Source: Kiritimatiellia bacterium
GTDB taxonomy: Bacteria; Verrucomicrobiota; Kiritimatiellia; RFP12; UBA1067
Length of the DNA stretch: 64,000 nt
Direction of reading: 5' to 3'
Assembly (NCBI GenBank): GCA_017427485.1
Contig: JAFRSR010000121.1
Span: forward strand, 1-64,000
In this document: positions 7,234-18,786 of the stretch, one piece after another
How the letters are laid out: the number at the start of each line of letters is the position of its first letter
Numbering within the stretch: position 1 is the first letter of the stretch
The notes under the pieces: generated by a model
What the model saw: the letters and a program-made list of their open reading frames with translations, nothing else
Told to the model about the DNA's origin: nothing
The model's database searches: none
Translations under genes and position numbers: made by a program

Positions 7234-8250
7234 ATGGGCATGAAGCGAACGATGATGATTGCCGGGCTGGCGGCAATTCTGGGAGGGCCGGCCGCCGTGC
7301 CGGCCCAGGCGGCGGTGAGCGTGACGGACGTCACCGCCAAACAGCGCTACCCCTGGAACGGCCTCGTCGATATCACGTGCAACGTGGCGGGCATCGACGG
7401 CGAGACGAACGGCTTGAAATTCGCGGTCGCGGCGGTGATGCCGGATACGGGCAACGCACGCAGCGCACGGAATTTTTGGGTGGTGCAGGGCGGCACCAAC
7501 TCTACAGATCGCGAGGTTCATGCGAACGGCAGCTACCGCCTTCTGTGGGACGCCCGCGCAGACCTCGGCATCGTGCGCTACACGAACATGGTCGTGCGCG
7601 TCAATTTCGATACCCATGAAAAAGTGCAGCTCTGGGAAGGCGGCCCGTATTGGGCCACCACCAACATCGGCGCCGAAAATCCGGAAGACTACGGCTATTA
7701 CTTCTGGTGGGGCGACACGGTGGGCTACAGGCGCGAAGGCAACGCCTGGGTGGCGACCGACGGCTCGTCTTCCAATTTCTCTTTCGGTTCCGGCAACACC
7801 CCGACTTACAATAAAACTCCAGCCACCTTGCAAAGCGAGGGCTGGGTCGTGTCGGAGAACGGCACGTACGTGCTTGCACCGGAGCATGATGCGGCGCAGG
7901 TACAGTGGGGCGGCGGCTGGCGTATGCCGACGTATCAGGAACTGAACGATCTCTGCTACAACAAGTGCGACTGGACGTGGACGACGCAGAACGGCGTGAA
8001 TGGCTACGTCGTTCGCGGACGGGGCGACTACGCCTCCGCGAGCATCTTTCTCCCCTGCGCCGGCTACGGCGACGGGACTTCGCTCAGCAATTCCGGTTCG
8101 TACGGCCGCTGCTGGTCGTCCGTCCCGCTCTCGGACAGCAACGGCTCGTGGTACCTCTACTTCTATTCGGGCGACCACGGCACGTACAGCAACTACTACT
8201 ACCGCAACTACGGTTTATCGGTTCGCCCTGTCCAAGGGTTCGCCCAATAG
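7234..8250 (+). CDS. DGR target: secreted protein with C-type-lectin/FISUMP-like variable domain
   Basis: 338 residues with signal peptide MKRTMMIAGLAAILGGPAAVPAQA (from the second Met). An N-terminal beta domain (about 28-125) is followed by a C-type-lectin-like/formylglycine-generating-enzyme-like domain of the Fibrobacter major-paralogous type: WATTNIGAENPEDYGYYFWWGD, GGGWRMPTYQELNDL, FLPCAGYGDG, and the terminal GLSVRPVQGFA. The last 50 or so residues are unusually rich in Y, S, N, D and G (YSNYYYRNYG), the pattern produced when AAY codons of a template are mutagenised at adenines. This is the variable region of a diversity-generating retroelement, and an RT gene follows. Likely a surface or secreted ligand-binding protein. 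Start: ATG at 7234 after AAAGGA; ATG at 7240 is an alternative. Confidence 0.8.
   Translation: MGMKRTMMIAGLAAILGGPAAVPAQAAVSVTDVTAKQRYPWNGLVDITCNVAGIDGETNGLKFAVAAVMPDTGNARSARNFWVVQGGTNSTDREVHANGSYRLLWDARADLGIVRYTNMVVRVNFDTHEKVQLWEGGPYWATTNIGAENPEDYGYYFWWGDTVGYRREGNAWVATDGSSSNFSFGSGNTPTYNKTPATLQSEGWVVSENGTYVLAPEHDAAQVQWGGGWRMPTYQELNDLCYNKCDWTWTTQNGVNGYVVRGRGDYASASIFLPCAGYGDGTSLSNSGSYGRCWSSVPLSDSNGSWYLYFYSGDHGTYSNYYYRNYGLSVRPVQGFAQ
8092..8247 (+). other. Putative DGR variable region (VR)
   Basis: The C-terminal coding part of the target. Many codons are NNC triplets (TAC, AGC, AAC, GGC, GAC, CAC) interspersed with fixed W, L, F and R codons. The end, SVRPV plus a C-rich CGCCCTGTCC stretch, is where an initiation-of-mutagenic-homing sequence normally lies. 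The exact borders cannot be set without the template repeat, which is not seen in the window. Confidence 0.6.
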
Positions 8251-8255
8251 CGAAC
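8238..8255 (+). other. Hairpin at the 3' end of the VR (spans the stop codon)
   Basis: GTTCGC-CCAATA-GCGAAC: a perfect 6-bp stem with a 6-nt loop containing the TAG stop. DGR targets commonly have a small hairpin/cruciform just 3' of the VR that stimulates retrohoming; this has the right place and size. Confidence 0.5.
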
Positions 8256-8316
8256 GAAGTGAGCGCATTCAATTCTTCAATTCTTTAATTCTTATGGTGG
8301 AATGGTAGGCAGAATT

Positions 8317-8372
8317 GGTAGGGCGCGTTGTCCCCAACGCGCCGCGGCGGCGTGAGGACACGCCACTCTACC
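8317..8372. repeat. Palindromic repeat, family B (complete unit)
   Basis: Opens with GGTAGGGCGCG and closes with CTCTACC, with two internal GC palindromes (GGCGCGTT/AACGCGCC and GGCGTG/CACGCC). Together with 7127-7180 it flanks the DGR target on both sides. The rest of 8256-8316 is an AT-rich run of AATTCTT repeats with no gene. Confidence 0.75.
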
Positions 8373-8385
8373 ATGAAAGGCGAAT

Positions 8386-10482
8386 ATGGCATCGATTGAG
8401 AACAGCCTGAAATACGAATCCGAAGTGGAGCCGGGAAAGATCCGGCTCGTCACGTCGGGCGAGTTCGTGCGCGCCTACAACCGCAGCGCGTGGCTGTTCT
8501 ACTGCTGCATCTCGAAATACAAGGTGATACGGAAATACTCCAAGCAGCAGCAGAAGGACGTGTACTTCCTCGGGTTTCCCGTGAGCAAGCTGCTGGAGCT
8601 TGCGAACGGGCGCGTGTGCACGAAGACGGACTTCGGGTACGACGTCATCCACGACCCGAAGATGCGCGAGGTGTTCGCGGCGGAATTCCGCGACCGGGTG
8701 GTACACCACCTCTTCTACAACTACACGCATGAACTCTTCGAGCGCACGTTCATCGCGGACAGCTACAGTTGCATCGAGGGGCGCGGCACGCACTACGGGG
8801 TGGAGAGGTTGAAGCATCATCTCCTCTCCTGCTCGCAGAACTGGACGAAGCCGTGCTACGTGCTGAAGCTCGACGTGAAGGGCTACTTCATGAGCATCAA
8901 CCGTGCGCGGCTGCTGGTGCGTTGCCGGGAGTTGCTGGGGAGGGTTAAATGTTCACAAATGGCAAATGGCACAATTGTTCACAAATCACAAATGGCAAAT
9001 AGCTGCGACGCGCGGAAGCCCTGCCGCATTTGCATTGATGGCATTGGTGGCAATTGTGAACAATTGAGATTTGTGAACAATGAAATCGCGTTGATGGATT
9101 GGCCTTTGGTGGACTACCTTCTCGAATCCATCTGCATGCTCGATCCAGTGGCGAACTGTCGCATCATCGGCGACAGGGACGAATGGAAGCTGCTGCCGAA
9201 GGAGAAGTCGCTCTTCAACTCGAAGCCCGGATGCGGTCTGCCGATTGGCAACCTCTCGTCGCAACTGTTCAGCAACGTCTACCTCGGCGTGTTCGACGAC
9301 TTCATGAAGCGCGAGCTCAAGTGCCGCCATTACGGACGGTACGTCGACGATGCGTATGTGGTCGCGTCGTCGAAGGAGGAACTTTGGCGCATCGTGCCGA
9401 GGGCGAGGGAGTTCTTGCGCGACGAACTGGAACTTGAACTGAACGAGGCGAAGGTGCGCGTGATCGACGCGCGCAGGGGCGTGGAGTTCCTCGGCGCGTA
9501 TGTGAAGCCGTACCGCACGTATCCGGCGAACAAGGCGCTTCGCAGGATGCGCGGGCGGCTGAAGTCGCTCGACTGGAGCGAAGGGCCGGACAAGGCGCAG
9601 ACGCGCGTGAACAGCATGTTGGGCGTGCTTTCGCACTACGACTGCTGGCACGTGCGCAAGGTGATAACATGGGAAGCGCGGTTGCGCGAACACGGGCGCG
9701 TGACGGACGACTGCCTCAGGTTCGAGCCGGATCGGCTACCTGTCCCACACGGTGTCGTCGTGCGTCAGCAAGGCGGCGCAACGGACGAACGCGAGGATGC
9801 GACACTGCTCGCCCACGACCTCGTACACGATGCGATAGGGGCGGATGATCAGTTGACGGAGGCGGTCCAGGTCGCGTGGCGGGGCGAGAAAGCATGCGAG
9901 CGGAATCCGGGAACCCATGGAGGGCATCGACTCAAGGAGGTTGACCTCCTCGGTGATCTTGGCATGCCACCTGATGCCGTCCTCGTAGGAGAGCGCCGTG
10001 ACGATGGCTCGGATTTGCTCCGTCAATTGTCCACCGGCATGGTTCGACCAGTCAACGGTCATGCAAGTGTCCTTTCGTCAAGCTGCTTTTTGAGCCGGGC
10101 CATCAGGTCGTGGTGCGAAATGAACTCGCCGCGCTCGAACTGGTCGCGTGAGATTTCGACAGACCGTGAAAGTTCCTCGCGTTCGCGGCGGGCTTCGTTG
10201 TCGGCCCAGAGATCCTCGAAGTCGGATATGTCCAATAGGATGGAGGCCGCGTGTCCGTTCTGCGTGATGACGAGCGGACGGTGCGTCCGACGCGTCCGCT
10301 GCATGCAGTCCGCGAGGGTTTGGCGGCATTCGGTGTACGATACCACGTCCTTATCGAGGCGTGGGCGTTGCAAGGTCATTTCTTTGACGGGCATAGAATC
10401 TCCTGTGGGTGAAACGCCCATATTGTACAGCAAACCGTACAGGCATGTCAAGGGGGATGGAAAAAGCAATTTGAAAGGCTGA
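8386..10482 (+). CDS. DGR-type reverse transcriptase with aberrant C-terminal read-through
   Basis: Reverse transcriptase that in DGRs copies a template RNA with adenine errors and feeds the cDNA into the VR of a target. The first 440 or so residues are RT: catalytic Asp 163 in LKLDVKGYFMSI, GCGLPIGNLSSQ (287-293, the IGxxxSQ motif that sets DGR enzymes apart from QGxxxSP of other RTs), and YVDD at 319-322, then the thumb (FLGAYVKPYRTYPANK). Two oddities. Residues 188-235 are encoded by an AT-rich palindromic insert that keeps the frame. After about residue 445 the frame runs antisense through a toxin-antitoxin pair, so the last 250 residues are probably not a real domain and the native C terminus seems lost. 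The gene may be decaying or the tail may be harmless. Confidence 0.8.
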   Translation: MASIENSLKYESEVEPGKIRLVTSGEFVRAYNRSAWLFYCCISKYKVIRKYSKQQQKDVYFLGFPVSKLLELANGRVCTKTDFGYDVIHDPKMREVFAAEFRDRVVHHLFYNYTHELFERTFIADSYSCIEGRGTHYGVERLKHHLLSCSQNWTKPCYVLKLDVKGYFMSINRARLLVRCRELLGRVKCSQMANGTIVHKSQMANSCDARKPCRICIDGIGGNCEQLRFVNNEIALMDWPLVDYLLESICMLDPVANCRIIGDRDEWKLLPKEKSLFNSKPGCGLPIGNLSSQLFSNVYLGVFDDFMKRELKCRHYGRYVDDAYVVASSKEELWRIVPRAREFLRDELELELNEAKVRVIDARRGVEFLGAYVKPYRTYPANKALRRMRGRLKSLDWSEGPDKAQTRVNSMLGVLSHYDCWHVRKVITWEARLREHGRVTDDCLRFEPDRLPVPHGVVVRQQGGATDEREDATLLAHDLVHDAIGADDQLTEAVQVAWRGEKACERNPGTHGGHRLKEVDLLGDLGMPPDAVLVGERRDDGSDLLRQLSTGMVRPVNGHASVLSSSCFLSRAIRSWCEMNSPRSNWSREISTDRESSSRSRRASLSAQRSSKSDMSNRMEAACPFCVMTSGRCVRRVRCMQSARVWRHSVYDTTSLSRRGRCKVISLTGIESPVGETPILYSKPYRHVKGDGKSNLKG
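8948..9083. repeat. AT-rich palindromic insert inside the RT gene
   Basis: A 136-bp AT-rich block in an otherwise GC-rich gene. ATTGTTCACAAATC (8974-8987) and its exact complement GATTTGTGAACAAT (9068-9081) form a 14-bp inverted repeat. A second palindrome, CAATTG-TGAA-CAATTG, lies at 9051-9066, and AAATGGCAAAT motifs repeat. It looks like a small MITE-like or hairpin element inserted between two RT helices without breaking the frame. Confidence 0.65.
9736..10062 (-). CDS. RelE/ParE-superfamily toxin
   Basis: 108 residues, the usual size. Features of the family: an N-terminal helix pair (LTEQIRAIVTALSYEDGIRWHAKITEEVNLLESMPSMG), then RQLIIRPYRIVYEVVGEQCRILAFVRCA, the conserved beta-sheet with the PYRIVYEV core. 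Members either cut ribosome-bound mRNA (RelE) or poison gyrase (ParE); which one cannot be told here. Its start overlaps the antitoxin stop by 4 bp, the standard coupled order (antitoxin first). It lies antisense to the extended reading frame of the reverse transcriptase. Confidence 0.8.
   Translation of the reverse strand: MTVDWSNHAGGQLTEQIRAIVTALSYEDGIRWHAKITEEVNLLESMPSMGSRIPLACFLAPPRDLDRLRQLIIRPYRIVYEVVGEQCRILAFVRCAALLTHDDTVWDR
10059..10394 (-). CDS. Phd/YefM-family antitoxin
   Basis: 111 residues. The N-terminal Phd/YefM DNA-binding half (ECRQTLADCMQRTRRTHRPLVITQNGHAASILLDISDFEDL) is diagnostic: an antitoxin that represses its own operon. The C-terminal tail (RDQFERGEFISHHDLMARLKKQLDE) would mask the toxin. 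The ATG at 10394 has AGGAGA 4 nt upstream; a longer in-frame extension to 10607 was rejected because it crosses the promoter. A sigma70 promoter lies just upstream. Confidence 0.85.
   Translation of the reverse strand: MPVKEMTLQRPRLDKDVVSYTECRQTLADCMQRTRRTHRPLVITQNGHAASILLDISDFEDLWADNEARREREELSRSVEISRDQFERGEFISHHDLMARLKKQLDERTLA
10422..10451 (-). promoter_or_regulatory. Sigma70 promoter of the toxin-antitoxin operon
   Basis: On the minus strand TTGACA (10446-10451), an 18-bp spacer, TACAAT (10422-10427). The spacer and -10 hold repeated TGTAC motifs (CTGTACGG, CTGTACAA) that could serve as the antitoxin's operator. Confidence 0.7.
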
Positions 10483-10494
10483 AAGGAACGAAAA

Positions 10495-13400
10495 ATGAAA
10501 AGAATGTCGATGTTTCTGTTTGCGGCGGTCGCGGCAAACGCGATCCTCCCGGCACGGGGTGGCGATTCCGCGCCGTTCCTGCTGGACACGGCGGACGGCA
10601 CGCGCATAGCGACGGAGGGCGAGGCGATTCCGATTGCCTATTCGCCCCGCTGGGGCAACGCCGCAAGCTGTACGGTGACTGAAAGCGGGAGGGCCGCGCT
10701 TGTCGCGGCCGCGACCTCCGAAGGCACCACCACGTGGACGCCGCAGGGCACGGGCGGCCACACCCTCACGCACACGGCTGGCTCCACCACCTACACCGCG
10801 CAATTCGCGGTGCTGGGCGATGACGTGGAGACTCATGGCGGGACGATCCTTTCCAATGAGACATGGGGGACGAATAAGGTTCATCTCGTCGTCGCGCCGA
10901 TAACCCTTGGCGATAATGACTTTTCCCACTTCTATCGGCTTGAGATACAGTCTGGCGCCATTGTGAAGTTCATGCCTGGGACAGGCTTGTCGATCGAGTC
11001 CAACGCCTATTGTTCGGCTTCAGGGGCAATCTTCACGCATGTGAATGACGATACCATAGGCGGCGACACGCTGATGGACGGCGATTCAACAAGCCCCGTG
11101 ATAGACGACTACGCAGTGTCCAACATGCTGTCTTGGGATGATACGATTGAATTTCGTTACCGCACTGATCCGAATGTGACTCTGTCGGGAACAATTTCAT
11201 CGGGCGAAACCTGGCGCGGACACAATATCTATTGTGTCACCGGTAACCTCACGGTTGCCTCTGGTGCGACGCTCACGATAATGCCCGGTGCTATTGTCAA
11301 ATTCGCAGAAGGGAAATCGCTCACGGTCAACAGCGGCGCAATGCTCACGCTTCAATCCGGCACGATCCTGAAGTTTGGCACGGGGTGCTCGCTCACGGTG
11401 AACGGTTTCTTGGACGCGCAGGGTACCCGCGCCGCGCCGATCGTTTTCACCTCACTGAAGGACGACGCCCACGGCGGCGACACGAACGGGGATGGGGAGA
11501 AGACCTACGCCCAGGCAGGGGATTGGTATCAAATCAGCGTTCCCGGCACGGCCAACTTCAACTACTGCCATGTACTGTACAACTCATCGACCGAGAACAC
11601 GGGTGCGATCGATGCGCGCGGCGGCACGGTCAATTTCGACAACAGCGAAATTGCTCATACTAAGTACGAGTGCGTGAATGCCCACAACAGCGGTTATTTC
11701 ACCGCCCGCAATTCGATATTCCGCGATTCTTCTCTTGGTTTCGGCTACTACGGGAGCGGTCGCGTCAAGGCGTACAACTGCGTGTTTGCCGACTTGACGG
11801 CGGGCATCAGACAAAGCGGCAAGACTCTGGTGAACTGCGTGTTCTATCGCTGCCTCGCCTTTACCGACCAAAGCGGTGATGGTAGCACGTTCAAGAACTG
11901 CGTGTTCTACAATCCATCTGGTTATGGTGCGCAGTCGTATTCCAAGTGCGGTTCCAACGGTAACATCTGGGACGATCCTCTCTTCGTCGACCCCGACAAC
12001 GGCGATTTCCGCATTGCGGCGAACTCGCCGTGTGTGGACGCGGGCGACGGCACGGTCGCACCGGCGACCGATTACTGGGGTCAGCCACGCATGGACGTGA
12101 AGGCGGTCGCCGACACCGGTACGCCCAACTCCGACGGCGTGTGCCCCGACATTGGCATCTACGAGGTGCCCGGCACGGCGCCTGTGCCGCTGCCGGATCT
12201 GGCGGTGGTTTCGGTCGCGACAAGCGCGACCCTCCCGCTTGCGCCCGGAGACTCTTTGGCCGTTACCTACACCGTGACGAACCGCGGCGCGGCGGCGGTC
12301 TCCGGCCTCGTGCGCGACCTCTTCCGCTTCACGGGCGCGGACGCGGCGACGGCGGGCCTTACGGTCGATGCTGCCGAGATCGAGCAGGCGTACAGCGTGC
12401 CGACTGGCGGATGCGCCACGCTCACGGCCACCGTCACCGTGCCAATGCTCAAGGCTGGCAAGTGGAAAGTGGGCGTGATGGTGAATTCCGGGCGCGTTCC
12501 ATACGAGGCGGTGATCGCGAACAATTTCGCTGAGGCGGACGAGATGATTACGGTTGCGGTCGAACCTTTTGCGGTCGGGGAGTCGAAAGACGTGGAAATC
12601 CCAGTTGGCGGCGTGGTTGGCGCGGCGGTGGTTGGACTACCCGCCACCGGCGGCGCGATCGTGGCGGCGCTGCCGAAGGGCGTCGTGTTCTACGCATCTG
12701 CGGGCTATGTGCCCGACGAAACGCGGCACGATGCGGCGGGTGTTCTGCTGGCCGACGGACGCACGGCACTCTTCATTCCGGCGCACGAAGAGGGCGAGAC
12801 GGTGTACGTCACGCTCGTGAACGATTCGAGGGCGGCACAGACGGTGGCGCTTGCGGCGCTGGCTTCAGGCGACGGCCTTGAAGTCGCGAAGCCCGCCGAC
12901 GTGGCGGTGACGGCGAAAGGGCCGAAGGTGACGGCGAAGCTCGTGCTGCCGGAGAGCGTCCGAGACGGGCGCGTGTACGCCGCCTGGGTGGAATACTCGA
13001 ACAGCGGCGACGAGGACGCCGAACTGCCGATCTTCACGGTCTCGCGCACCGGCGGCGGGGCGACGCTTTCGGCGACCGCGAAGGGAACGTATTCGGCGAA
13101 TCCGCTTTCGCTCGTTGGGCTTGCGCCGTCCGCGCCGCGCGGGAAGCTGAAGCCGGGCGAGGCGGGGCGCGTGGCGTTCTACTTCATGTCGTCCGGCAAT
13201 CTGTCGCTGAAGCTCGGCATGGTGACGGAAAAATCGACGTCCGTGCTGAACGGTTTCGCGACGGTCGCCGAATACCGCGCGGGGATGAGCGCGGCGGCGA
13301 CGCGGCTCTGCGCGCGCGGCGGGGCGGAGCCGGGATTCACGGAGGTGCTTGCCCAGGCGCTCAACGAGAAGCGCGGCGCGGGCGGCGCGGCGGTGTGCGG

Positions 13401-16400
13401 AACTTTGAGGCATTCCGCCACGAAGATGCCGATGACGGGAGTGGAGGTGCATCTCGTCTTGACGAATGACTCGTCTGTCGTCGATGCCGTGTTGACGGAC
13501 GCGAACGGACATTTCACGTTGACAGCAGATGATGCGGGCGATTATGCGGTGGACGTACGAGACGTGTTCTCGCATGCGCCTTGTATCGTCTCCCTTGCGG
13601 TCGGAGAGGACACTCCGGTCTCGCTGTCGGCGGTTCCGCTCTCTTCCGTGTCCGGCGTCGTGGGATATTCCGGCACGGCAGAAATCGCCGTCGGCGCGAC
13701 CGTCGTGCTGGACGACCTCTCGACTGCCGATGCCGAGGACAGGGTTGCCGAGACGGACGAATCCGGCATGTACTCGTTCGGCGGACTCGCGGACGGCGAA
13801 TACAGGCTGTCCCTCTATCCGTTCGAGGGCTACGCGCTTGTGGAATCGGATGCTTTCTCGGTTTCAAACGGAGTCCCCGTGTCGCGCAACCTCTCATACG
13901 GTGCGAAGGGGCGGGTTGTCTCCGGGGTCGTGGCGGATGTGGAAACCGGCGCCGTCGTGTCGAATGCGGTTGTGATGTTGTCGCGCGGAGGGACGAGTCT
14001 GGGCGTGACGACAGACGGAGGCGGGCGGTTCAAGTTCGACGGCATCGCCGCCGGACGCTGGGGTTTGACCCTTGAGGCGCCGGCGCATCAGGTGGACGGG
14101 GTGTCCGAGATCGTAGTCGAGGACGGCGCAGGCGAACAGCGCATTGACATTCCGGCGCGCGCCAAATGTCCGTTTGCGGTGTTGCGTCCTGTGGGCATGG
14201 TTCCGCACAAGGCCACGTTCTCCGTTTTGCGCGAGGGAGTCGATTCGCTTGAATGGGATTTCGACGGCGACGGAGTCGCCGACTCAACCTCGGAGACGCC
14301 CGAGTGGACGTATTCTGCGGCTGGCACGTATTCGGTCGCGCTCTCCTATACGGACGGCGACGGCGTACGGAGACGGTCGCAGTGGACGGATGCCGTGAAA
14401 GTTGTCGCGCCATTCGAGAACGTCCTCAAGCCGAACGGCGTACTGGTCTCGGAGGCGGACGGCGTCGCAGTCGAAAGCGTGTCTGAGACGGAACTCGCGC
14501 TTTCCGGTAGTCCGGTTTCGGCATGGGCTTCGCCGGGAACGGTGCTCGGCGCGGAGACTTCGTCGAAGGGCGGCTTCATCCGCCGCGTGGTTTCGTCCGA
14601 GAATCTGGGTGGCGGCCGCTGGCGATTCACGGTCGAGAAGGCGGGGCTGGCCGATCTGTACGAGCAGTATTTCATGTCGGGCGACATTGCGCTGTCGGCG
14701 GCAAAGGCGAGAAAACTCATGGCGGCGCGGCTGGCCTCGGCCTCGCGCAGCGGCTCCGGCGAAGAGGTGTCGCACGGGGCGAAGGTGGTTGTTCCCGAGC
14801 GCGAGGCGGACAATTCGTTTACGCTGCCTACGCTTTCTTACACGCCTTTGTTCTCAGACGCTTCTGCGTCGATAACTGGTTCGTTCGAGGCGTGGAACGG
14901 CGATGCCGTCAAAGGAAGCTACGGGGCGTTGGTGTCCGAGGGACGGGTCTTGATGACGTGGTACTCCGCCACCGACACCTACAAGGCGACGGTCACGGCG
15001 TCCGCCTCCTACACAAAGGACTGGACGAAGGGGTTGACGGGGAAGGAGCCGTTTTCAAAGACCTGGAATCAAAGTTGGGCCGACATTCCGATCGGATGGG
15101 GCTTTTCGCTCAGCCTCCAGACGGACGAAGACCTGAAGTTCTCGATCGAGGGGTCTGGCACCGTGACGGTCGAACAGTCTTTCATGGCGAGACGAACGCA
15201 GATGTTCTTTTTCGACGAGGACGGAGAACTTGACAGCTCCACGACGACAGACTGGGGGGCGACAACCTCCACGAAGAGGAGCATTGCGGGGTCGATTTCT
15301 CCCACTCTTGACGCGTCACTCACGCTGGGTCTGTATGGCTCGTTCGCCAAGTTTGTAGGCCGGGCTGGAGGCGGGCCGAAGGTCGGCGCAAAACTGTCGG
15401 TCACGCAGAGCTTGGGCATCGGGGTCGAGAATTCCTTCTCGGCGGGTTCGTCGGGAGTGGACTTTGACATGGCGCCGATTGTCGAGTCCAAGCTCGAGCT
15501 TGGATTCACCCCTTATGTCGGCGTCAACGTGTCCTGGAAATGGCTGAACATTCCCAAGGCGAAAAAATACGATGTCGATCTGCCGTTGAAGATGGAATGG
15601 CCGAACACGGCAAACGTGGGGAAGATGGGCATGTCAACTGCCGGAGACGGCCTGACCGTGACGTTCACGGCGCAAAACCCGAAGATCGAGGCGACGGGCT
15701 GGATTTTCAAAGACCTGCTCGGTCTGGACGGCGTTGAAGTTCCCGCCGACAAGTTCTTGTGGGGGCTTGGGGACGGATCGCTTCTTCAGGAAGGGCGAAC
15801 CGTTACACATACATACGCCAAGGAAGGCAGGTACAAGATTCGGCTGTTTGGCGAGTCTCCCATCCCAGCTACGCTGATTACGTACACGGGCAGCCCGTTC
15901 GTAAGGACGTCAGTGAAGTGGATCGAGGTATTCGACGACAAGCCGCCAGAGCCGCAGGACTCCGTAGACACCGGCAACAAGACCCCGAAGCAGTCGTGCG
16001 ACCCGAACGAAATGGACGGGCCGGACGGTGTGGGCGAAGAACGCTACGTGAAACCCGGCGAGTGGATGACGTACACCGTCTATTTCGAGAACAAGTCCGA
16101 CGCGGACGTCCCGGCGCAGGAGGTGCGCGTGACGAATCCGCTTTCCGAATGGCTCGACTGGAGTACGTTCGAGATGTGCGATATCGCTTTCTGCAACCAG
16201 GTCGAGACGGGTCTTGCCGGCAAGCAGAACGGGACAATCACTGTTGGTCAGAACGATACTGCGTACAAGGTTCAGGCGACCGTCGCGCTTAATGGCGACA
16301 ACGGGGTTGTAGAGTGGCATCTGCGGAGCTTGGACCCAGCGCGCGCCGACTTCAACTACTGGCCGCCGGACGGCGAGGGCCTGCTGCCGCCCAACGACGC

Positions 16401-18786
16401 CACCCACCGCGGCGAGGGGCACCTCACCTACCGCGTCAAGGTGCGCGACGACGCGCCGGCGAACGTGAAGATCGTGAACAGCGCGACAATCGTGTTTGAC
16501 TACAATGATCCAATTGAGACTGAACCCAACTGGACAAACACCGTTGCGCAGGTTGCGAGCGTGAAGGTCAACGGCGATGTTGAAGGGGAAGTGGCGGATC
16601 TCGATCTGATCGTCGGCATGCCGTATGGCGAGCTGCCCACGCCAAAGGCGCGGGCGGGGCACACCTTTGCCGGGTGGTACACCGGGCCGAGCGGCACGGG
16701 GCGGCGCGTGACGGCGCAGTCGCTCGTGGAGCCTGGCGACAGCCGTCTGTACGCCTATTGGCTTGCGCACGCCTACACGGTTCACTTCGAGCCCAACGGC
16801 GGAGAGGGGACGATGAGCGACCAGGCGTTTGAGTTCGACAAGGAGGACGAGCTTGATGCCAACGCATTCACGCGGAAATTCTACCTGTTCACGGGTTGGG
16901 CCACGAACGAGACGGGCGAGGCTGTGTTTGGGGACAGCGCGGTTGTCACGAACCTCACGGCCATTGACCACAGCACGGTGACGCTCTATGCGACATGGCG
17001 ATACAACGCCGTCGAGGTGTCGTTCGACGCGCAGGGCGGGACGCCCGTCCCGGCGAACAGCCTGTACGAACTGGACGCACCGTACGGTGAGTTGCCGGAG
17101 CTCACGCGCAGCGGCTTTACCTTCGGCGGATGGTACACCGGGCCGAACGGCACGGGGCGGCGCGTGACGGTTCAAGACCATGCGCAGGCGGATGTCACGA
17201 AACTGTACGCGCACTGGCTCGCGCACGCCTACACCGTGCGGTTCCATGCCAACGGCGGCACCGGGCTGATGAGCGACCAGGCGTTTGAGTTCGACAAGCC
17301 TACGGCACTCGATGCCAACGCCTTTACGCGGCAGGGGTTCTCCTTCGCGGGCTGGGCCACGAACGCGACGGGCGTGGCGGTCTACGCCGACGGCGTTGAG
17401 GTGAGAAACCTCACGGATGTCGATGGCGGCGTGGTGACGCTCTACGCCACGTGGACGGTCAACTCCTACACCGTCACGTTCGACGCGAACGGCGGTGTGG
17501 GCGGCTGGAGCCGTGAGATGGAATACGGCGCGGAGATCCATGCGCCTACGGTGACGCGCGAGGGCTACACCTTCGCGGGTTGGCAGCCCGTGCTACTCGG
17601 GACCGTTCCGGCGAACGACGTGACGTTCACGGCGCAGTGGGAGATCAGCGAGATCGTCAAGCCGGACCCTGGGCCAGAGCCCGATCCCGAGCCGGTCGCG
17701 GAGGAGACGCCGCGTCTGTGGACCGAGGTGACGGGCGCGGCGCCGTCGGCGGCCACGACCTACGAGGGTTATCTCTACGACGCCAGCGGGAACGTGAAGG
17801 GCACGATCCAGGTGAAGGTGGGCAAGCCCAACAAGAAGACCGGTCTCGCCGCCGTGAAGGCGACGGTGATCGGGACGGACGGCAAGAAGAAGACGCTCAA
17901 GGCGGCCGAGAAGGGCAAGGCGCAGATCGCGGGTGACGGCCCGACCACGATTCCGCTTGCGGGCGGAGACGCCTGCGAGGTGATCCTCGGCGCGAAGGGC
18001 ATGGGCGGCACGTATGGCGCGTATGTGATCGACGGCTCGCTGAACGTGTTCGCGTCGAAGGACGCGGCGGACAAGTCCGTCGCGGCGGGAGTGCTCGGCA
18101 AGTGGAAGGGCACGGTGAACGTGGCGTGGCGGCTCGTCGGGGACGGCTCGCCCTACCAGACGCTGTCGGTGACCATCGCCGCCAAGGGCAAGGCGAAGGT
18201 GGCCGGGACGCTCGCGGACGGGACGAAGGTGAGCGCGAAGGGGCAGCTGGTCGTGGGAGAGGAATGGTGCTGCGTGCCGGTGGTGGTGGCCAAGAAGGCG
18301 AAGCTCGCGTTTGCGGTGTGGTTGCCGTTGAACGAGAAAGCCGCCGGGACGGCGGCTCCCCATGGTGCGGCCGCTCCGGTAGTGGTCGGGCTTGACGATG
18401 CGATTGCGGGGAAGCCGGGGACGTTGAAGGCCGGGGCGGCGTTCAGGCTGGGCGGCGAGATGGGCGATGCCACGTACGAGGCCTACTTGCCGAACGGCGT
18501 GCCGGTGACGGGCGGCGCGAAGTGGACGCTGCCGAAGGCCGGCAAGGTGCAGCAGGCGAAGGACGGCACCGTGGACGCGGCGAAGCTGGGCGAGAATCCC
18601 TCCGCGCTGAAGCTCACGTACAAGGCGAAGGACGGGACGTTCAAGGGCTCGTTCAAGGCGTATGCGGACGTGGGCGGGAAGCCGAAGGGGACGACGGTGA
18701 AGGTGACGGGCGTGTTGGTGGGGGGCACGGGGTATGGCGCCGCGACGGTGAAGGGCGGCGGCGGTGTGGCCGTGACGGTGGAGTGA
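10495..18786 (+). CDS. Giant secreted surface protein: beta-helix, CARDB, PKD, InlB-type repeats
   Basis: 2763 residues with a signal peptide (residues 1-22). Order: right-handed beta-helix (about 110-560) ending in the SPCVDAG...PDIGIYE pattern; CARDB-like adhesive domain (566-682); carboxypeptidase-regulatory/CNA-B-like repeats (about 975-1220); PKD domain (1222-1306, WDFDGDG); long beta-rich region (about 1450-1720); DUF11/DUF7619-like domain (1833-2017, CDPNEMDGPDG); four InlB B-repeats (2041-2382, GYTFAGW, TLYATW); and a C-terminal pair of related beta modules (about 2420-2763, AxYEGYLYDASGNVKG and ATYEAYLPNGVPVTG). Probably an adhesin or cell-surface matrix protein; no catalytic site seen. 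Palindromic elements lie in frame at 10687-10720 and 18340-18375. It starts about 100 bp from the divergent TA operon with AAAGGAACG upstream. Confidence 0.85.
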   Translation: MKRMSMFLFAAVAANAILPARGGDSAPFLLDTADGTRIATEGEAIPIAYSPRWGNAASCTVTESGRAALVAAATSEGTTTWTPQGTGGHTLTHTAGSTTYTAQFAVLGDDVETHGGTILSNETWGTNKVHLVVAPITLGDNDFSHFYRLEIQSGAIVKFMPGTGLSIESNAYCSASGAIFTHVNDDTIGGDTLMDGDSTSPVIDDYAVSNMLSWDDTIEFRYRTDPNVTLSGTISSGETWRGHNIYCVTGNLTVASGATLTIMPGAIVKFAEGKSLTVNSGAMLTLQSGTILKFGTGCSLTVNGFLDAQGTRAAPIVFTSLKDDAHGGDTNGDGEKTYAQAGDWYQISVPGTANFNYCHVLYNSSTENTGAIDARGGTVNFDNSEIAHTKYECVNAHNSGYFTARNSIFRDSSLGFGYYGSGRVKAYNCVFADLTAGIRQSGKTLVNCVFYRCLAFTDQSGDGSTFKNCVFYNPSGYGAQSYSKCGSNGNIWDDPLFVDPDNGDFRIAANSPCVDAGDGTVAPATDYWGQPRMDVKAVADTGTPNSDGVCPDIGIYEVPGTAPVPLPDLAVVSVATSATLPLAPGDSLAVTYTVTNRGAAAVSGLVRDLFRFTGADAATAGLTVDAAEIEQAYSVPTGGCATLTATVTVPMLKAGKWKVGVMVNSGRVPYEAVIANNFAEADEMITVAVEPFAVGESKDVEIPVGGVVGAAVVGLPATGGAIVAALPKGVVFYASAGYVPDETRHDAAGVLLADGRTALFIPAHEEGETVYVTLVNDSRAAQTVALAALASGDGLEVAKPADVAVTAKGPKVTAKLVLPESVRDGRVYAAWVEYSNSGDEDAELPIFTVSRTGGGATLSATAKGTYSANPLSLVGLAPSAPRGKLKPGEAGRVAFYFMSSGNLSLKLGMVTEKSTSVLNGFATVAEYRAGMSAAATRLCARGGAEPGFTEVLAQALNEKRGAGGAAVCGTLRHSATKMPMTGVEVHLVLTNDSSVVDAVLTDANGHFTLTADDAGDYAVDVRDVFSHAPCIVSLAVGEDTPVSLSAVPLSSVSGVVGYSGTAEIAVGATVVLDDLSTADAEDRVAETDESGMYSFGGLADGEYRLSLYPFEGYALVESDAFSVSNGVPVSRNLSYGAKGRVVSGVVADVETGAVVSNAVVMLSRGGTSLGVTTDGGGRFKFDGIAAGRWGLTLEAPAHQVDGVSEIVVEDGAGEQRIDIPARAKCPFAVLRPVGMVPHKATFSVLREGVDSLEWDFDGDGVADSTSETPEWTYSAAGTYSVALSYTDGDGVRRRSQWTDAVKVVAPFENVLKPNGVLVSEADGVAVESVSETELALSGSPVSAWASPGTVLGAETSSKGGFIRRVVSSENLGGGRWRFTVEKAGLADLYEQYFMSGDIALSAAKARKLMAARLASASRSGSGEEVSHGAKVVVPEREADNSFTLPTLSYTPLFSDASASITGSFEAWNGDAVKGSYGALVSEGRVLMTWYSATDTYKATVTASASYTKDWTKGLTGKEPFSKTWNQSWADIPIGWGFSLSLQTDEDLKFSIEGSGTVTVEQSFMARRTQMFFFDEDGELDSSTTTDWGATTSTKRSIAGSISPTLDASLTLGLYGSFAKFVGRAGGGPKVGAKLSVTQSLGIGVENSFSAGSSGVDFDMAPIVESKLELGFTPYVGVNVSWKWLNIPKAKKYDVDLPLKMEWPNTANVGKMGMSTAGDGLTVTFTAQNPKIEATGWIFKDLLGLDGVEVPADKFLWGLGDGSLLQEGRTVTHTYAKEGRYKIRLFGESPIPATLITYTGSPFVRTSVKWIEVFDDKPPEPQDSVDTGNKTPKQSCDPNEMDGPDGVGEERYVKPGEWMTYTVYFENKSDADVPAQEVRVTNPLSEWLDWSTFEMCDIAFCNQVETGLAGKQNGTITVGQNDTAYKVQATVALNGDNGVVEWHLRSLDPARADFNYWPPDGEGLLPPNDATHRGEGHLTYRVKVRDDAPANVKIVNSATIVFDYNDPIETEPNWTNTVAQVASVKVNGDVEGEVADLDLIVGMPYGELPTPKARAGHTFAGWYTGPSGTGRRVTAQSLVEPGDSRLYAYWLAHAYTVHFEPNGGEGTMSDQAFEFDKEDELDANAFTRKFYLFTGWATNETGEAVFGDSAVVTNLTAIDHSTVTLYATWRYNAVEVSFDAQGGTPVPANSLYELDAPYGELPELTRSGFTFGGWYTGPNGTGRRVTVQDHAQADVTKLYAHWLAHAYTVRFHANGGTGLMSDQAFEFDKPTALDANAFTRQGFSFAGWATNATGVAVYADGVEVRNLTDVDGGVVTLYATWTVNSYTVTFDANGGVGGWSREMEYGAEIHAPTVTREGYTFAGWQPVLLGTVPANDVTFTAQWEISEIVKPDPGPEPDPEPVAEETPRLWTEVTGAAPSAATTYEGYLYDASGNVKGTIQVKVGKPNKKTGLAAVKATVIGTDGKKKTLKAAEKGKAQIAGDGPTTIPLAGGDACEVILGAKGMGGTYGAYVIDGSLNVFASKDAADKSVAAGVLGKWKGTVNVAWRLVGDGSPYQTLSVTIAAKGKAKVAGTLADGTKVSAKGQLVVGEEWCCVPVVVAKKAKLAFAVWLPLNEKAAGTAAPHGAAAPVVVGLDDAIAGKPGTLKAGAAFRLGGEMGDATYEAYLPNGVPVTGGAKWTLPKAGKVQQAKDGTVDAAKLGENPSALKLTYKAKDGTFKGSFKAYADVGGKPKGTTVKVTGVLVGGTGYGAATVKGGGGVAVTVE
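10687..10720. repeat. Palindromic element, family C, in frame in the giant surface gene
   Basis: GGGAGGGCCGCGC followed by its GCGGCCGCG partner closely matches the reverse complement of the intergenic copies at 18805-18832 and 18865-18892. It encodes residues around SGRAALVAAATSEG. Confidence 0.6.
18340..18375. repeat. Palindromic element, family A, in frame in the giant surface gene
   Basis: GCCGCCGGGACGGCGGC followed by TCCCCATG and TGCGGC is the same string as the intergenic copies at 6740-6775 and 18964-18999. It adds the alanine-rich stretch KAAGTAAPHGAAAP to the C-terminal module. Confidence 0.8.

What the first reader, a model, noticed from the sequence alone, without database searches (positions are those of the whole stretch)
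7234..9720. Diversity-generating retroelement: hypervariable lectin-like target plus DGR-class RT, with no template repeat in sight
Seen: a secreted C-type-lectin/FISUMP-like protein with a Y/S/N/D/G-rich end (SNYYYRNYGLSVRPV), followed by an RT with IGNLSSQ and YVDD. The IGxxxSQ motif is the accepted mark of DGR reverse transcriptases. A 3' hairpin sits at the VR end. I found no A-rich partner of the VR and no Avd gene in the 64 kb. Either the template was lost when the RT tail was replaced by the toxin-antitoxin pair, or it acts in trans. A DGR in a PVC-type genome diversifying an exported binding protein is of real interest.
Basis: partly seen in the sequence, partly recalled or inferred. 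Interest (0 to 1): 0.85.

Follow-up and report, generated by a model that had tools for sequence, protein, structure and literature searches.

The report
Degenerate hypermutation element with lost template
This rumen-bacterium locus is the remains of a diversity-generating retroelement, a known kind of system that rewrites one end of a binding protein; here a deletion of about 1.2 kb removed the template and helper gene, so the target gene carries the marks of past hypermutation but almost certainly can no longer be rewritten by this locus.

Summary
A secreted Lcl_C/DUF1566-type protein (7234-8250) is followed by an ORF with IGNLSSQ and YVDD, and no template repeat (TR) lies in the 64 kb. The RT is a DGR RT: its closest solved relative is the 328-aa RT 8ub7 (the BPP-1 DGR RT, identified from memory), and it sits at 100/100 support with three Kiritimatiellae RTs whose loci all carry a TR/VR pair. 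Those intact relatives show what is missing: target, MutS-like accessory (MSL), Avd, TR, RT. In the window the first 87 codons of the "RT" are really the MSL start, joined at 8643-8649 to the RT core. The deletion removed the rest of MSL, all of Avd, the TR and the RT N-terminus. The toxin-antitoxin pair displaced only the RT's last residues and stop. The VR still bears a DGR footprint: against a relative's TR, 26/52 mismatches at template A versus 12/137 elsewhere (P=3e-9), AAY wobble positions untouched (0/20). No cognate TR or Avd exists in the 90%-complete genome, although three further orphan targets and one unrelated, intact-looking DGR do. Degenerate DGRs with remote targets are already described (PMC10907252), so this is a new member of a known kind.

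The parts
7234..8250 (+). Target gene: secreted protein with C-terminal Lcl_C/DUF1566-like domain carrying the VR
   Evidence: ORF; Lcl_C E=1.8e-4; orthologous targets 55-71% identical in intact DGR loci L070, L071, L095
8051..8244 (+). Variable repeat (VR), orphan; its 3' end (GTTCGCCCTGTCCAAGGGTTC) is IMH-like
   Evidence: Matches the TR of G011 at these coordinates, 78%; mismatches 26/52 at TR-A versus 12/137 at other positions, P=2.7e-9; AAY positions 1-2 21/40, wobble 0/20
8248..8294 (+). Post-VR recipient element: imperfect hairpin GCGAACGAAGTGAGCGC plus tail CATTCAATTCTTCAATTCTTTAATTCTT, beginning at the target's stop codon
   Evidence: Same element after target genes across the order; 3 pattern hits in the own genome, all at targets, reversed-pattern control 0; weak fold
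8386..8646 (+). Remnant of a MutS-like accessory gene (first 87 codons of about 165)
   Evidence: 84% identical to MSL of G011 over codons 1-90; separate ORF in relatives; MutS_I E=0.02 for the G060 homologue
8643..8649 (+). Deletion junction (3-4 bp microhomology, TCA/ATCA); about 1.2-1.34 kb missing relative to G011/G023
   Evidence: Pairwise alignments of both sides to intact relatives
8648..9732 (+). DGR reverse-transcriptase core lacking its N-terminal ~60 residues; IGNLSSQ and YVDD present
   Evidence: Alignment A1; RVT_1; phrog_1423 E=1.6e-74; PDB 8ub7 E=9.6e-37; tree
8945..9084 (+). MITE-like dispersed repeat inserted in frame in the RT between motif A and IGNLSSQ, with inverted-repeat arms
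   Evidence: Inverted repeats; about 20 short matches elsewhere in the own genome; remnants at the same site in G011 and G023, absent in G060
9733..10482 (+). Read-through tail of the RT ORF, antisense to the toxin-antitoxin genes (native RT end and stop lost)
   Evidence: Relatives stop shortly after DDCLRF
9736..10062 (-). ParE/RelE-family toxin
   Evidence: ParE_toxin E=1.1e-7
10059..10607 (-). Phd/YefM-family antitoxin (true start probably internal, near 10395)
   Evidence: PhdYeFM_antitox E=4.1e-10, match to residues 87-145

Best explanation
The locus is a degenerate DGR. An ancestor carried target-MSL-Avd-TR-RT and diversified the C-terminus of the exported target by mutagenic retrohoming: A-mutagenised cDNA copied from the TR RNA replaced the VR, with the post-VR hairpin marking the recipient. 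A deletion of about 1.2 kb across 3-4 bp of microhomology then fused MSL codon ~87 to the RT core and removed the rest of MSL, all of Avd, the TR and the RT N-terminus. A toxin-antitoxin pair now sits at the RT's 3' end. The target is left as a frozen, formerly hypermutated binding protein. Shown: the anatomy, the footprint and the absence of a cognate TR/Avd from the assembly. Inferred: loss of activity, and that the loss was recent (no clear acceleration of RT protein evolution).
For: Window RT ORF residues 1-88 and 86-445 match separate places 1.2-1.3 kb apart in G023, G011 and G060. Those loci encode target, MSL, Avd and RT with an A-biased TR/VR (G060: 157 matches, 25 A mismatches, 0 others). 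Junction aligned. Avd confirmed as phrog_3206 'Avd protein of DGR', E=1e-16. Window VR footprint: P=2.7e-9 and wobble 0/20, while the 5' part of the same gene shows the opposite, third-position pattern and TR-versus-TR comparison shows no A excess. RT clade support 100/100 with three TR-bearing loci; 23 of 30 related RT loci have an unambiguous A-biased TR/VR. No TR or Avd in own genome and no TR in window.
Against: RT dN/dS is still low (0.13-0.16 for the window and its two closest relatives, versus 0.09-0.10 between the intact relatives) and the long chimeric ORF is open, so decay is not visible in the RT core itself. The genome is a 446-contig MAG at 90% completeness, so a TR could be unassembled. 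There are no reads to exclude assembly error, but the junction does not lie in the TR/VR repeat or any long repeat.
Confidence: 0.9

Rival explanations
1. Still diversified in trans: a TR (and Avd) elsewhere in the cell or in co-resident strains templates the window VR, with the chimeric RT or another DGR's RT doing the copying.
For: In the relative G011, whose DGR is complete, a remote gene on another contig (C102) carries a VR with 21/51 A mismatches versus 6/137 others, so trans targeting is likely in this family. RT core is under purifying selection. Mixed intact and degraded DGR variants are described in Thiohalocapsa (PMC10907252).
Against: No cognate TR or Avd in the 6.3 Mb assembly. 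The genome's other DGR (C431) has an unrelated FGE-type TR. The window RT lacks its N-terminus.
Confidence: 0.07
2. Assembly artefact: the real genome has an intact DGR and the contig is a false join or a minority variant.
For: MAG with 446 contigs, 7% contamination; TR/VR repeats are hard to assemble.
Against: The join lies in MSL and RT core, not in TR/VR or another long repeat; it is in frame with 3-4 bp homology; none of the missing pieces appears on any other contig.
Confidence: 0.05
3. The RT belongs to another class (retron, group II intron, defence RT) and the lectin-like gene is an unrelated neighbour.
For: Group II, DRT and retron models give hits, below their curated cut-offs.
Against: Best structure relative is 8ub7 at 1e-36 against 1.7e-9 for group II; IGNLSSQ motif; nested among TR-bearing DGR RTs; VR footprint.
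Confidence: 0.01
4. The MSL-RT chimera with its repeat insertion is a new functional protein, not debris.
For: Open reading frame, low dN/dS in the RT core, MSL start and its reading frame retained.
Against: One genome only; RT N-terminus, Avd and TR lost together; the C-terminus runs into antisense toxin-antitoxin sequence; other relatives show independent truncations of MSL (G009, G057, G016), which fits decay.
Confidence: 0.03

Closest known systems
Complete DGRs of rumen Kiritimatiellae (L070 goat rumen RGIG3447, L071 RUG14821, L095 UBA3783)
   Same: Same target family, MSL start, RT core (78-80% identical best segments) and post-VR element; L071 and L095 also share the downstream giant secreted protein
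   Different: They keep MSL, Avd, TR and the RT N-terminus; the window lacks most or all of these and has a toxin-antitoxin pair at the RT end
Degenerate DGR loci and remote targets of Thiohalocapsa PB-PSB1 (PMC10907252)
   Same: Loci with missing RT or TR, MITE-like repeats, remote VR genes, kinase- or NTPase-fused lectin targets
   Different: Other phylum; there intact loci of the same class and population variation were shown; here no cognate TR is found and no reads are available
Bordetella phage BPP-1 DGR (RT 8ub7; hairpin/cruciform work PMC3240598)
   Same: DGR RT with Avd partner in relatives; C-terminal VR followed by an IMH-like end and a hairpin element at the stop codon
   Different: Bacterial, not phage; extra MSL accessory; the window copy has no TR or Avd and a weak imperfect hairpin
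DUF1566/Fib_succ_major DGR targets of gut microbiomes (PMC4159848)
   Same: Same type of C-terminal variable domain
   Different: Those were found in human microbiomes as RT, TR and VR together

Membership tests
Diversity-generating retroelement (functional) | RT of the DGR clade (IGxxxSQ motif, groups with DGR RTs) | tested here: met
   IGNLSSQ and YVDD; 8ub7 E=9.6e-37; 100/100 with TR-bearing loci
Diversity-generating retroelement (functional) | Template repeat paired with the VR, mismatches at template adenines | tested here: not met
   None in window or own genome; present in sister loci
Diversity-generating retroelement (functional) | Accessory protein (Avd/HRDC/MSL) | tested here: not met
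   Avd absent from own genome; MSL cut to 87 codons
Diversity-generating retroelement (functional) | Complete RT | tested here: not met
   N-terminal ~60 residues deleted, native C-terminus and stop lost
DGR target gene | C-terminal VR with A-site footprint | tested here: met
   26/52 versus 12/137, P=2.7e-9; wobble 0/20
DGR target gene | IMH-like 3' end and downstream inverted repeat | tested here: met
   Conserved end and post-stop element in most relatives' targets; pairing in the window copy is weak
DGR target gene | C-type lectin fold around the VR | tested here: inconclusive
   Weak Lcl_C match; AlphaFold2 models of low confidence, pLDDT 55-57, no significant fold matches
DGR target gene | Ongoing variation in the population | not testable with these tools
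   No reads or second strain available
Retron / group II intron / DRT | Scores above curated cut-off for the family | tested here: not met
   group_II_RT_mat 84.6 bits versus cut-off 300; Drt and retron models far below cut-off

The most novel reading that the evidence does not exclude
In rumen Kiritimatiellae a VR-plus-hairpin-plus-tail cassette has spread to many genes (secreted proteins, a kinase-fused and a GTPase-like-fused protein), forming a trans-acting DGR target network. The window records its repeated loss, leaving whole repertoires of frozen, formerly hypermutated sensors; some may still be rewritten in cells that keep the template.
Probability: 0.3. Interest if true: 0.6.

Novelty: new member of a known kind. 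Interest (0 to 1): 0.4.

Why it matters
It is a clean natural knock-out of a DGR: template, accessory and RT N-terminus gone, target and recipient element kept. Compared with close relatives that have the full system, it allows a direct test of whether VRs freeze once the template is lost, and of what selection does to a formerly hypermutating protein. The order-wide spread of the same VR cassette suggests DGR repertoires in gut bacteria are larger than surveys see: the Roux et al. survey looked for an RT within 1 kb of an imperfect repeat and states that it would not detect remote targets (PMC8144416), so orphan target genes like these would be missed.

Tried and rejected
Toxin-antitoxin insertion as the cause of template loss: rejected, the TR in relatives lies upstream of the RT core and the RT is complete to DDCLRF. 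TR elsewhere in window or genome: not found. Use of the second DGR (C431): its TR encodes an FGE-type repeat unrelated to this VR. Pseudogene decay seen as raised dN/dS: only slightly higher, not decisive. Target fold by AlphaFold2 (two jobs) and Foldseek: low confidence, no usable match. PDB search with the target domain: best hit 8q4e at E=0.063, not significant. Avd against PDB by single sequence: no hit. Viral contigs: only two distant relatives. First TR/VR scan timed out and was redone with seeds. The mismatch counts printed for L148, L143, L109, L128 and L130 refer to the TR in the same stretch, not to the local VR, and were not used.
Full report
What is there. The window is contig C50 of a 6.3 Mb, 446-contig MAG (90% complete, 7% contamination). 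The relatives that match best are Kiritimatiellae MAGs, two of them from ruminant sets.

The RT ORF is a chimera. Searching 192 relatives showed that residues 1-88 and 86-445 match separate places 1.2-1.3 kb apart in three genomes. Reading those loci gave complete DGRs: target, a ~165-aa accessory, Avd, a template repeat in frame upstream of the RT core, and the RT. The TR/VR pairs are typical: in G060, 157 matches, 25 mismatches all at template A, none elsewhere. The accessory has a sub-threshold MutS domain I match (E=0.02) and Avd matches bAvd (E=4.9e-9, just under the curated cut-off) and phrog_3206 'Avd protein of DGR' (E=1e-16). The name MSL for the MutS-like accessory is from memory of the DGR literature; no paper naming it was found in the library. 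Aligning both sides puts the window's join at about 8643-8649, with 3-4 bp of shared sequence. Lost: half of MSL, all of Avd, the TR and ~60 RT N-terminal residues. At the other end the RT is complete to DDCLRF; only its last residues and stop are displaced by a ParE/Phd toxin-antitoxin pair. Between motif A and IGNLSSQ the RT carries a MITE-like repeat with about 20 short matches elsewhere in the genome. Remnants at the same site in G011 and G023, which have complete DGRs, suggest it is tolerated.

It is a DGR RT. The profile's best solved relative is 8ub7 (E=9.6e-37; 328-aa RT, from memory the BPP-1 DGR RT), far ahead of group II (1.7e-9) and retron/DRT proteins. In a 54-row tree it groups at 100/100 with L070, L071 and L095, inside an 18-row clade with Bacteroidota (99/100). 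Of 30 related RT loci, 23 have an unambiguous A-biased TR/VR pair (24 with L086, whose direction is unclear); scans for C, G or T bias give only a few weak hits.

The target bears a DGR footprint. Against the G011 template, the window VR differs at 26/52 template-A positions and 12/137 others (P=2.7e-9). Within AAY codons, positions 1-2 differ at 21/40 and the wobble at 0/20 (P=1.6e-5). The 5' part of the same gene shows the ordinary opposite pattern (third positions 0.50, first and second 0.17-0.19), though A positions there are also somewhat more variable (0.37 versus 0.26). Template against template shows no A excess. Several of the non-A differences fall in the IMH-like 3' end (alignments).

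The recipient element. Directly at the stop codon lies GCGAACGAAGTGAGCGC plus an AT-rich tail. Its pattern occurs three times in the genome, each after a target gene, and never in the reversed control. The same element follows many targets across the order. Some relatives have a strong hairpin (G060, G057, G001); the window form is weak by folding energy (G001 sequence). In BPP-1 such a hairpin/cruciform downstream of VR is needed for efficient homing (PMC3240598).

No template remains. The window has none, with positive controls. The G011 template region finds only target genes in the own genome above noise and Avd finds nothing. The genome does hold another, intact-looking DGR on C431 with an HRDC accessory and an FGE-type target, but its template is unrelated.

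A wider pattern. The own genome has three more genes with this variable domain: C212 (secreted, strong footprint), C8 (kinase-fused, no hairpin, weaker footprint) and C409 (GTPase-like, hairpin present, footprint not clear at codon level). In G011 a gene on another contig carries a VR close to that genome's TR (21/51 versus 6/137), so remote targeting is likely there. Matches to the domain occur in 56 of 144 relatives, many with the post-VR element and A-biased differences, in genomes without this RT. MSL truncations in G009, G057 and G016 point to repeated decay. These P values compare genes that share ancestry, so they should not be multiplied together.

Activity and timing. RT dN/dS for the window and its two closest relatives is 0.13-0.16 versus 0.09-0.10 among the intact ones, and window-specific residue changes are not more numerous (11 versus 9, 17, 19). 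This suggests recent loss rather than long decay; it does not show activity.

Known context. DGRs number >30,000 and mostly diversify C-terminal lectin-fold domains (PMC8144416). DUF1566 and Fib_succ_major are common targets (PMC4159848). Degenerate DGR loci, MITE-like repeats, remote targets and kinase/NTPase-fused targets are described in Thiohalocapsa (PMC10907252). The window is therefore a new, well-resolved degenerate member of a known kind. What deserves a further look is the order-wide spread of the VR cassette. Main limits: a fragmented MAG, no reads, one genome for the deletion, and no confident structure for the target.

Noticed in passing
own genome C431:1-9000 (L059, L002): A second, intact-looking DGR: RT, HRDC accessory, FGE-sulfatase-type target, TR/VR with 15 A and 2 other mismatches.
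   Followed up: partly
own genome C8 (L061:2733-4541) and C409 (L062:3047-4657): Orphan variable domains fused to a Ser/Thr kinase (C8) and to a weak double-GTPase match (C409), like conflict-system sensors.
   Followed up: partly
G011 C102:11458-11646 (L141): Remote VR of a complete DGR, in a GTPase-like gene on another contig; 21/51 A mismatches versus 6/137 others.
   Followed up: partly
window 8945-9084: MITE-like repeat inside the RT, about 20 short matches in the genome and many in related genomes; some read in frame in other ORFs.
   Followed up: partly
L057 (G009 C225): Target and truncated MSL run into an ORF that looks like a REP-associated tyrosine transposase (by eye, not tested) where Avd, TR and RT would be.
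   Followed up: no
window 10495-18786: Giant secreted protein with a GDSAPF.LDT start; a similar gene follows the target or DGR in G011, G060, G009, G057 and own C212.
   Followed up: no
L072-L085: RTs about 39-53% identical, most with TR/VR, in Bacteroidales MAGs, many from ruminants: possible transfer of this DGR type between phyla.
   Followed up: partly
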